Positions 25,024 through 31,022 of a DNA stretch of 64,000 nt are shown in pieces (position 1 is the first letter of the stretch; each line of letters begins with the position of its first letter). The notes beneath the pieces are model-generated. The model did not search any database and had not been told where the DNA came from. It was given only the letters and a program-made list of their open reading frames with translations. The position numbers and the translations under genes are program-made. The stretch comes from Phymorhynchus buccinoides (lineage: Eukaryota; Mollusca; Gastropoda; Neogastropoda; Raphitomidae), in contig CM065713.1 of the NCBI GenBank assembly GCA_017654935.2, positions 15,828,447-15,892,446 of the forward strand, read 5' to 3'.

Positions 25024-25031
25024 AAAGCAGA
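25024..25031. repeat. Left 8-bp target-site duplication AAAGCAGA
   Basis: Immediately precedes the terminal GGG of the foldback MULE and is identical to 31015-31022. Confidence 0.85.
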
Positions 25032-27215
25032 GGGAATCCGGAATAAGTTCGAATATACGGGTGCGCCTAATGTCGAATGTATGCTTTAGCCTAAGATCGA
25101 AGTTTTGAAATTCAACACTTCAGCCTAAGTTCGAATTGCGCAATTGCGCCTAAGTTCGAATACACGGTTGCGCCTAAGTTCGAATGTACGGTTTAGCCTA
25201 AGTTCGAATTATACGGTTGCGCCTAAGTTCGAATGTACGGTTTAGCCTAAGTTCGAATTATGCAGTTGCGCCTAAGTTCGAATGTACGGTTTATCCTAAG
25301 TTCGAATTATGCAGTTGCGCCTAAGTTCGAATGTACGGTTTAGCCTAAGTTCGAATTATGCAGTTGCGCCTAAGTTCAAATGTGCGGTTTAGCCTAAGTT
25401 AGAATTATGCACTTGCACCTAAGTTCGAATGTACGGTTTAGCCTAAGTTCGAATTATGCAGTTGCGCCTAAGTTCGAATGTGCGGTTTAGCCTAAGTTCG
25501 AATTATGCAGTTGCGCCTAAGTTCAAATGTGCGGTTTAGCCTAAGTTAGAATTATGCACTTGCACCTAAGTTCGAATGTGCGGTTTAGCCCAAGTTAGAA
25601 TTATGCAGTTGTGCCTAAGTTCGAATGTACGGTTTATCCTAAGTTCGAATTATGCAGTTGTGCCTAAGTTCGAATGTACAGTTGTGCCTAAGTTCGAATG
25701 TACGGTTGTGCCTAAGTTCGAATGTACGGTTGTGCCTAAGTTCGAATGTACAGTTTAGCCTAAGTTCGAATTATGCAGTTGCGCCTAAGTTAGAATGTAC
25801 GGTTGCACCTAAGTTAGAATGTACGGTTGTGCCTAAGTTAGAATGTACGGTTGCACCTAAGTTAGAATGTACGGTTGCACCTAAGTTAGAATGTACGGTT
25901 GCACCTAAGTTAGAATGTACGGTTGCACCTAAGTTAGAATGTACGGTTGCACCTAAGTTAGAATGTACGGTTGCACCTAAGTTAGAATGTACGGTTGTGC
26001 CTAAGTTAGAATGTACGGTTGTGCCTAAGTTAGAATGTACGGTTGTGCCTAAGTTAGAATGTACGGTTGCACCTAAGTTAGAATGTACGGTTGCACCTAA
26101 GTTAGAATGTACGGTTGTGCCTAAGTTAGAATGTACGGTTGTGCCTAAGTTAGAATGTACGGTTGCACCTAAGTTAGAATGTACGGTTGTGCCTAAGTTA
26201 GAATGTACGGTTGTGCCTAAGTTAGAATGTACGGTTGTGCCTAAGTTAGAATGTACGGTTGTGCCTAAGTTAGAATGTACGGTTGCACCTAAGTTAGAAT
26301 GTACGGTTGCACCTAAGTTAGAATGTACGGTTGCACCTAAGTTAGAATGTACGGTTGTGCCTAAGTTAGAATGTACGGTTGCACCTAAGTTAGAATGTAC
26401 GGTTGTGCCTAAGTTAGAATGTACGGTTGTGCCTAAGTTAGAATGTACGGTTGTGCCTAAGTTAGAATGTACGGTTGCACCTAAGTTAGAATGTACGGTT
26501 GTGCCTAAGTTAGAATGTACGGTTGTGCCTAAGTTAGAATGTACGGTTGTGCCTAAGTTAGAATGTACGGTTGTGCCTAAGTTAGAATGTACGGTTGCAC
26601 CTAAGTTAGAATGTACGGTTGTGCCTAAGTTAGAATGTACGGTTGTGCCTAAGTTAGAATGTACGGTTGTGCCTAAGTTAGAATGTACGGTTGTGCCTAA
26701 GTTAGAATGTACGGTTGTGCCTAAGTTAGAATGTACGGTTGTGCCTAAGTTAGAATGTACGGTTGTGCCTAAGTTAGAATGTACGGTTGTGCCTAAGTTA
26801 GAATGTACGGTTGCGCCTAAGTTAGAATGTACGGTTGCACCTAAGTTAGAATGTACGGTTGTACCTAAGTTAGAATGTACGGTTGTGCCTAAGTTAGAAT
26901 GTACGGTTGCACCTAAGTTAGAATGTACGGTTGTGCCTAAGTTAGAATGTACGGTTGCACCTAAGTTAGAATGTACGGTTGTGCCTAAGTTAGAATGTAC
27001 GGTTGCACCTAAGTTAGAATGTACGGTTGTGCCTAAGTTAGAATGTACGGTTGTGCCTAAGTTAGAATGTACGGTTGTGCCTAAGTTAGAATGTACGGTT
27101 GTGCCTAAGTTAGAATGTACGGTTGCACCTAAGTTAGAATGTACGGTTGTGCCTAAGTTAGAATGTACGGTTGTGCCTAAGTTAGAATGTACGGTTGCAC
27201 CTAAGTTAGAATTGA
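25032..27215 (+). repeat. Left arm: about 24-bp tandem array
   Basis: Two zones. The outer zone (about 25032-25770) has units with core CCTAAGTTCGAAT alternating between TACGGTTTAG and TATGCAGTTGCG contexts, making a roughly 49-bp higher-order unit. The inner zone (about 25771-27210, about 60 units) is nearly uniform, with core CCTAAGTTAGAATGTACGG in two interspersed variants, TTGTGCCT and TTGCACCT. The 24-bp unit lacks stops in several frames, so it creates false 500-codon frames on both strands. Confidence 0.9.
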
Positions 27216-27581
27216 TGATTTCATAGCAATGTACTATTGAATCCTGGTGGAGGTGGAAAAAAAACCCACCCACCTGTATCACACAATCTGCATAAACATA
27301 TGAGTAAAAACGGAAGAAACCCCCTGAATCACACACAGAAGCATGCAAATCGAATGACATCGAATACAGTCGAGTACAGTATCACGAATTGCACGTTTTA
27401 CACGTACTTCACTTGAATCGACTCAAAGGTACCCATCCGCTCAACAATTAATTGTAAAGTAATTGTTTAACTGTATTCACTGTATTCACGTATAAACTCG
27501 TTAGATAACCCCATCAATCGCATAGCCACCCCATTCAGTCTGTGATTCGCTGACAAGAACGTGAGAACAAGAACTGCCAAA

Positions 27582-27804
27582 ATGTATCGAACGATTGAGG
27601 GAAAAAGGAAATCGTCGATTCTGTACGAACACGACAATTTTACGTACATACAAAACAAGTGCACGGACAGTATGTTGTACGTAAAATGCAACAACAAAAG
27701 CTGCAAGGCGACGGCAATCATCTCCCGCCAGGAAGATACGATTCGAGTCACAAAACAACACAACCATGGACCTTCGGACGACGAGTTTTTCCAAGTTTTG
27801 AAGG
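27582..27804 (+). CDS. Transposase exon 1: FLYWCH-type zinc finger
   Basis: ATG at 27582; donor AAGG|gtaagt. Encodes [16 protein letters not shown] and [13 protein letters not shown]. The intron begins with a CT microsatellite. Confidence 0.8.
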
Positions 27805-30326: not shown

Positions 30327-30619
30327 CTCTTCTCCACCCGTAAAAAAAGAAAGAGGAATTTCTTGAGAAAGAAAGGGGAATTTATCAAATGCTGCATGTT
30401 TCTGCCCAGTCCGGAAAAAAACTCGGATGTTTTTGGCTGTGTTTTGGCTGTGTTTTTCTCTTTGAGTGTGTATGCGTTGGTTTTACAATTACAAAAATTT
30501 GCGAATAAAAGTATTATTGGCCCCAACATATCTCGCATCTCGCAGGAGAATCTTGGTCATTAGCGAGAGAGACAGAGAGAGAGAGAGAGGGATGGAGCGC
30601 ATTTGGGAGGGGGATGAAG

Positions 30620-31014
30620 CGTACATTCGAACTTAGGCTAAACCGTACATTCGAACTAAGGCACAACCGTATATTCGAACTTGGGCTAAACCGTATATTT
30701 GAATTTCAGCACAACTGTGCAGTTCGACCTTAGGCTAAACCGTACATTCGAACTTAGGCGCAACGGTTTATTCGAACTTAGACAAAACTGTGCAATTCGT
30801 ACTTAGGCGGAACCGTATATTCGAACTTAGGCGCAACGGTAAATTCGAACTTAGGCACAACTGTGCAATTCGGACTTAGGCGGAACCGTATATTCGAACT
30901 GAGGCACAACCGTATAACTAGACTCAAAATTTCGACCTTAGGCGCAATTGTTGATATGGCCCATCATTTTCGACCTTAGGCGCACCCGTATATTTGAACT
31001 TTGTCCGGTCACCC
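30620..31014 (-). repeat. Right arm: inverted array of the same units
   Basis: About 16 divergent units reading TTCGAACTTAGGC in this strand, the reverse complement of the left outer-zone core. None carries the GTTAGAAT variant that dominates the left inner zone. Confidence 0.85.
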
Positions 31015-31022
31015 AAAGCAGA
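31015..31022. repeat. Right 8-bp target-site duplication AAAGCAGA
   Basis: Immediately follows the terminal CCC of the foldback MULE and is identical to 25024-25031. Confidence 0.85.

What the first reader, a model, noticed from the sequence alone, without database searches (positions are those of the whole stretch)
25024..31022. Complete foldback-type MULE with exact 8-bp target duplication
Both ends carry the same terminal motif (GGGnnnCCGGA, 39/46 matching bases), and AAAGCAGA abuts both ends exactly. The inverted arms are built of about 24-bp tandem units and enclose a transposase gene. This is the FB/NOF-like architecture of Drosophila, here in a probable mollusc, and it appears autonomous in layout.
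Basis: partly seen in the sequence, partly recalled or inferred. Interest (0 to 1): 0.88.

Follow-up and report, generated by a model that had tools for sequence, protein, structure and literature searches.

The report
Mobile element with RING-tailed transposase
This is a real "jumping gene" of a known kind (a Mutator-type transposon with long hairpin-forming repeat arms) with relatives elsewhere in the same genome; its jumping enzyme carries an extra ubiquitin-ligase-like tail that is the unusual part, and this copy itself is broken.

Summary
The element is 25032-31014, with exact 8-bp duplications (AAAGCAGA) on both sides and termini matching at 39/46. In its own genome the left terminus occurs at 36 places and the right at 31, with no control matches. 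Of 30 other copies read at both ends, 21 have exact 8-bp duplications, 19 different sequences, none of 9 bp. Seven copies have empty counterparts, closed at the predicted junction. Each end is a 10-bp cap (left GGGAATCCGG, right GGGTGACCGG) plus 24/25-bp tandem units. Three predicted exons encode FLYWCH, MULE transposase and an IAP-like RING. MULE and RING share one frame in another copy and in a diverged sister family, with purifying selection between families; some relatives show no RING hit. This copy is not autonomous: its frame breaks at about 29737. The nearest published plan is that of the Phantom-type foldback elements Muta1 and Tm1; FB/NOF is a look-alike. Known kind, variant by its RING tail.

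The parts
25024..25031 (.). left target site duplication AAAGCAGA
25032..25041 (+). left 10-bp cap GGGAATCCGG; same in 36 of 37 left ends scored in other copies
25042..25783 (+). outer left arm: mostly 24+25-bp units as 49-bp dimers (first units irregular)
25784..27212 (+). inner left arm: homogenised array of 24-bp units, 58 units at 96% mean identity
27582..27804 (+). predicted exon 1; FLYWCH domain at about 27630-27767
28384..28618 (+). predicted exon 2, no Pfam match; GT-AG introns on both sides
29080..29737 (+). predicted exon 3, first part: MULE transposase domain (29180-29449); presumed D (DGTF), D (TDFE), CxxH (CWFH), W and E (NNSVE) assigned by eye
29738..30326 (+). predicted exon 3, second part, in another frame than the first (frame break at about 29737); ends in a C3HC4 RING, about 30150-30302
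30504..30509 (+). AATAAA polyadenylation-like signal
30611..31004 (-). right arm, inverted 24/25-bp units, about 14
31005..31014 (-). right 10-bp cap, GGGTGACCGG read inward; same in 25 of 28 right ends scored in other copies
31015..31022 (.). right target site duplication AAAGCAGA

Best explanation
A full-length but broken copy of a cut-and-paste Mutator-superfamily transposon of Phantom-like, foldback type. Shown: element boundaries, 8-bp target duplication, a family with the same ends and clean empty sites, and a FLYWCH-MULE-RING gene between the arms. Inferred: the FLYWCH zinc finger binds the 24-bp arm units, which act as multiple subterminal binding sites; the DDE domain cuts at the 10-bp caps and joins with an 8-bp stagger; the short copies (arms nearly back to back, 523-914 bp) are moved in trans by coding copies; the RING tail acts as a ubiquitin ligase or dimerisation module that tunes transposase level or a host factor. 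The window copy cannot make the full protein as it stands.
For: Ends and duplication. Genome census: 36 left and 31 right termini, 0 control matches each. 19 of 28 scored copies have exact 8-bp duplications, 3 more one mismatch, 17 distinct, 0 of 28 with 9 bp; the only exact matches between different copies (4 of 756 pairings) fall within two duplicated loci. Two copies that the search expression had missed (L009/L055, L036) also have exact 8-mers, making 21 of 30. Empty counterparts for L011, L012, L013, L014, L015, L016 and L026 (73-99.6% identity). The short copies are 98% identical (median over 27); one folds as a long hairpin, z -34.8 against 20 shuffles. FLYWCH, MULE and RING all above Pfam cut-off. 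MULE and RING in one open frame in L057 and L058. FLYWCH, MULE and RING in order at sister locus C11:7799649-7802751. pN 0.23-0.28 against pS 0.76-0.88 between L058 and the window/L057 pieces.
Against: No transposition, binding or ligase activity was measured. Nine of 28 scored copies lack an exact 8-bp duplication at the called position (L013, L024, L026 with one mismatch; L037 has the 8-mer shifted by one base; L018, L019, L022, L045, L046 do not show it). No protein relatives outside this genome could be searched, so Phantom membership rests on domains and anatomy, not on a tree. No fully intact coding copy was shown: L048 has breaks of its own, and L057 has an open exon 3 but changes at one presumed catalytic and one presumed zinc-binding residue.
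Confidence: 0.93

Rival explanations
1. A true relative of Drosophila FB/NOF.
For: Long inverted arms of short tandem repeats around a coding region.
Against: Duplications are 8 bp and never 9 in the 28 copies scored; FB/NOF 9 bp is recalled. FLYWCH+MULE with a short terminal motif and tandem repeats matches Muta1 and Tm1. The Tm1 paper says that foldback-like arms arose in unrelated transposon lineages.
Confidence: 0.05
2. The arms' tandem units are only slippage-prone filler with no role in transposition; the caps alone are recognised.
For: Left arm length varies from about 1 (two old copies) to 88 units, and the inner left array is homogenised at 96%, as expected from slippage or unequal exchange. 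L020, L025 and L038 count only 1 right-arm unit by an automatic rule.
Against: The short copies consist of little but arms, about 311+304 of 645 bp in the common form, so arms are what is kept. Galileo repeats were shown to hold transposase binding sites (abstract).
Confidence: 0.3
3. The RING tail is a chance read-through or a recent local fusion with no selected role.
For: RING-type hits are common in this genome (89 matches at E<=0.001 for the C-terminal piece, copies of the element included, 150 of 214 candidates scored). Relatives with both FLYWCH and MULE hits on C1 (91.09 Mb), C24 (20.82 Mb) and C25 (32.56 and 32.58 Mb) have no RING hit listed. Within the family, window against L057, dN/dS is 1.18 for MULE, 0.72 for the tail and 1.7 for the RING alone, on few changes.
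Against: The RING is in frame with MULE in L057 and in diverged L058, and follows FLYWCH and MULE at the C11 sister locus; pN is far below pS between families.
Confidence: 0.1
4. The duplication and terminal similarity are chance or come from segmental duplication.
For: Some copies are duplicated with their flanks (L030/L031, the two in L016, L034/L035).
Against: 19 distinct duplications, census of both ends, and empty sites.
Confidence: 0.005

Closest known systems
Muta1 (Aedes aegypti; placed with Phantom by PMC6446971), PMC5225508: passages and Discussion read
   Same: MULE transposase; 8 or 9-bp duplications; TIR made of a 10-bp terminal motif plus 9 copies of a 12-bp subterminal tandem repeat; called a type 2 foldback; over 300 nonautonomous derivatives; residues like those tested there (DDE, CxxH, W) can be picked out here by eye
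   Different: Here 24/25-bp units, up to about 88 in one arm; end-specific caps; C-terminal RING; three predicted exons; only 8-bp duplications seen
Tm1 (Meloidogyne), PMC3169594: passages and part 1 of 2 of the Discussion read
   Same: Phantom-type FLYWCH+MULE inside foldback arms; end-specific short terminal motifs; MITE-like derivatives
   Different: Mostly 9-bp duplications; ~14-bp unit; its FLYWCH lacks the last histidine; no RING (0 hits for the word in the main text)
Phantom, group 20 of the MULE survey PMC6446971: passages, parts of its table included, read
   Same: No zinc finger, FLYWCH or SWIM; 8-10-bp duplications; TIR 18-613 bp; invertebrate hosts
   Different: Molluscs not in its host list; no RING listed for it. 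In the passages seen RING appears as a separate ORF in a Ghost element and as a C3HC4 ring finger for one Phytophthora element (37_Pi)
Drosophila FB/NOF (recalled)
   Same: Long inverted arms of tandem units
   Different: 9-bp duplication (recalled); relationship of the coding region untested
Galileo (P superfamily), PMC3688188: abstract and outline seen
   Same: Multiple transposase binding sites in long repetitive arms, a model for what the units may do
   Different: THAP/P-type transposase, another superfamily
Tetris (Drosophila virilis), PMC4079207: passages read
   Same: Foldback with tandem repeats in arms, 8-10-bp duplications
   Different: About 220-bp units, no coding copy found by its authors

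Membership tests
Mutator superfamily (MULE) | MULE/DDE transposase domain | tested here: met
   PF10551 32.3 bits, cut-off 27.6; D, D, CxxH, W, E picked out by eye
Mutator superfamily (MULE) | target duplication of about 8-11 bp | tested here: met
   8 bp in window and in 21 of 30 other copies
Mutator superfamily (MULE) | phylogenetic placement of transposase | not testable with these tools
   protein database off
Phantom | N-terminal FLYWCH plus MULE domain (as defined in PMC3169594) | tested here: met
   FLYWCH 26.3 bits, cut-off 23.6, with CX4C and HXH by eye
Phantom | groups with Phantom transposases in a tree | not testable with these tools
   no reference sequences could be fetched
Foldback-type element (architectural) | long inverted arms of short tandem units that can fold back | tested here: met
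Drosophila FB/NOF | 9-bp target duplication (recalled) | tested here: not met
   0 of 28 copies scored with 9 bp
Drosophila FB/NOF | NOF-type coding region | not tested
   no NOF sequence at hand
Autonomous transposon | intact transposase frame | tested here: not met
   frame break at about 29737, first frame stops at 29897; frame is open past this point in L048, L049, L050, L057

The most novel reading that the evidence does not exclude
A lineage of Phantom-like foldback MULEs whose transposase has a built-in RING E3 ligase, kept by selection across diverged families; the tail would regulate transposase dose or remove a host silencing factor, with the long repeat arms titrating the same protein.
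Probability: 0.3. Interest if true: 0.65.

Novelty: new variant of a known kind. Interest (0 to 1): 0.45.

Why it matters
It gives one family, in one genome, that has coding copies, mobile short derivatives, satellite-like growth of one arm and clean empty sites, so the idea that foldback arms are stacked binding sites can be tested. A RING tail fused to a transposase and conserved between diverged families suggests that some transposons carry their own link to the host ubiquitin system.

Tried and rejected
Viral, phage, prokaryote and plasmid collections gave no relative of the MULE piece. No solved structure matched it. A single-sequence fold was too poor to use (pLDDT 50.7), so no fold search was made. 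Rfam found nothing at its gathering scores. The long open frames through the left arm (524 and 529 aa) were set aside as a mechanical result of a 24-bp unit. A 2818-aa open frame reported at C27:24343265 is an artefact of masked N upstream. A transposition without the right cap was considered for L048: CACATAAT abuts both ends although the right cap is absent (read by eye); a small deletion after insertion explains it as well. L049/L050 show no duplication at their right end. Two other inverted pairs with identical flanking 8-mers are palindromes. Of 29 joined-flank queries, nine had a hit across the junction (L011, L012, L013, L014, L015, both in L016, L026, L037, list cut in the middle); those of seven loci read cleanly at the junction (second copy in L016 not read), L037 does not align cleanly and was not counted.

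Papers: searches answered were made; failed ones were, a failed look-up was, and one search was malformed. No paper on a FLYWCH-MULE-RING transposase appeared in the answered searches of openly licensed PMC papers; Repbase was not available, so novelty is provisional.

Full report
Check of the observation. AAAGCAGA stands at 25024-25031 and 31015-31022; the element between them is 25032-31014 (5983 bp). The two ends match at 39 of 46 bases. The left arm is a tandem array to 27212 and the right arm a shorter inverted array from about 30611. The unit core is not found elsewhere in the window. A scan of inverted pairs in the window (>=39/46, within 8 kb, complexity filter) left three with identical flanking 8-mers; the other two 8-mers are palindromes.

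Anatomy. Each end begins with a 10-bp cap and then runs straight into 24-bp units. The cap is end-specific: GGGAATCCGG in 36 of 37 left ends and GGGTGACCGG in 25 of 28 right ends scored among the other copies. The outer left arm consists mostly of 24+25-bp dimers; the inner left arm is a homogenised array of 58 units at 96% mean identity. Left arms in the other copies count 1 to 41 units against 88 here by the same rule, so this arm has probably expanded.

The gene. Three predicted exons with GT-AG junctions (27582-27804, 28384-28618, 29080 onward) encode a FLYWCH domain (26.3 bits), a MULE domain (32.3 bits) and a C3HC4 RING (43.5 bits), each above its Pfam cut-off. The RING resembles IAP-type RINGs among solved structures (best BIRC7, E 6.4e-6). 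The frame is broken at about 29737, just after the last presumed catalytic residue (assigned by eye); the first frame stops at 29897. Three other copies read on past this place (L048, L049, L050), and so does L057. L048, L049 and L050 have breaks elsewhere.

Family test. The left-end search scored 40 of 499 candidates; of the 38 best rows after the window's own, 33 begin at query base 8 or 9, i.e. at or one base before the predicted boundary 25032, and the other five at 5-7. I fetched 38 other loci. A search expression found 37 left ends; 28 had a right end within the 4.4 kb fetched. Nineteen of 28 have exact 8-bp duplications, 3 have one mismatch, and 6 do not match at the called position (L018, L019, L022, L037, L045, L046; in L037 the 8-mer is shifted by one base). 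The 19 include two duplicated loci, giving 17 distinct sequences; pairing left and right 8-mers of different copies gave 4 exact matches of 756, all within those duplications; none of the 28 has 9 bp. A later look at two copies that the expression had missed (L009/L055 right end, L036 left end) showed two more exact 8-mers, so 21 of 30 and 19 distinct. Eight left ends remain without a scored right end: in L047, L051, L052, L053 and L056 part of the 10-kb stretch reads N, and L048, L049, L050 lack the right cap. A pattern census gives 36 left and 31 right termini with no control matches.

Empty sites. The flanks of 29 elements (window included) were joined with one duplication removed and compared with all fetched DNA. 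Clean counterparts at the junction were read for L012 and L016 (both inside tandem satellites; the L012 match reaches only 27 bp beyond the junction), L015 (against L040), L026 (against L019), L011 (against L038), L013 (73%, in the same locus) and L014 (against L046; this insertion sits in an older arm-like sequence). L037 was not clean. The window copy gave no empty counterpart in that DNA.

Derivatives. The short copies are 523-914 bp, median pairwise identity 98% over 27 copies that include two old ones at 63% to each other. The common 645-bp form is about 311 bp of left arm and 304 bp of right arm, and one such strand folds into a long hairpin (z -34.8, 20 shuffles). L038 is a 3239-bp copy with both caps and its duplication and parts of the gene (C13). 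L048 is a second long coding copy, about 94% in its longest matching stretch.

The RING tail. In L057 the MULE and RING lie in one open frame of 418 codons. In L058, a sister family at 62% (MULE) and 52% (C-terminal) identity, they lie in one frame of 416. At C11, FLYWCH (40%), MULE (59%) and RING (52%) lie in order, although this copy has a break near the RING. Against this, relatives with FLYWCH and MULE hits on C1, C24 and C25 have no RING hit listed, so the tail marks a lineage, not all relatives. Between L058 and the window/L057 pieces pN is 0.23-0.28 and pS 0.76-0.88 for MULE, tail and RING; between L058 and L059 MULE dN/dS is 0.09. Within the family (window against L057) dN/dS is 0.7-1.7 on few changes, as expected of decaying copies. 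So the fused protein, tail included, seems to have been selected over the longer term; synonymous sites are saturated, so no exact ratio is claimed for the tail.

How it likely works. Published data on Muta1 show that such a transposase excises and reinserts in yeast with 8- or 9-bp duplications and needs the DDE residues, the histidine of CxxH and a tryptophan; what look like the same residues are present here before the break. Galileo gives the precedent for binding sites stacked in long arms (abstract). That FLYWCH binds the 24-bp unit, and that the RING is a ligase, are inferences.

Comparison. Muta1 has the same plan: a 10-bp terminal motif, short subterminal tandem repeats, 8-9-bp duplications, and is called a type 2 foldback. 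Tm1 shares FLYWCH+MULE, foldback arms and end-specific terminal motifs. In the passages seen of the MULE survey, RING appears as a separate ORF in a Ghost element and as a ring finger for one Phytophthora element. FB/NOF fits the look but not the duplication length (recalled). I therefore call it a Phantom-like foldback MULE, a variant because of its RING tail; the tree that would settle family membership could not be made.

Limits. 

Noticed in passing
window 12799-13087 and 14766-15054: Inverted pair of 289 nt, 94% complementary, 1678 nt apart; possibly another mobile element.
   Followed up: no
window 35809-35938 and 37241-37370; 15764-15898 and 15933-16067: Two more inverted pairs (96% and 90%), the second a hairpin with 34 nt between the arms.
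   Followed up: no
window 10597-12173: 45-bp minisatellite, 35 copies, with a 450-codon open frame at 10624-11976.
   Followed up: no
window 50401-52147: 60-bp tandem array, about 28 copies.
   Followed up: no
window 24622-24840 (minus): 73-codon open frame starting with ATG about 180 bp from the insertion; the element may sit upstream of a host gene. No Pfam match.
   Followed up: partly
window 6788-6863 (minus): ARAGORN predicts a tRNA-Ala (cgc).
   Followed up: no
G000 C21:21636526-21836519: Cluster of RING-like frames at about 60% identity to the element's RING; candidate source or derivative of the tail.
   Followed up: no
L048, near 5911: Long coding copy with exact 8-bp duplication CACATAAT although the right cap is missing.
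   Followed up: partly
L012, L016, L014: Short copies inserted inside tandem satellites (L012, L016, the latter present twice with its flanks) and inside an older arm-like sequence (L014).
   Followed up: partly
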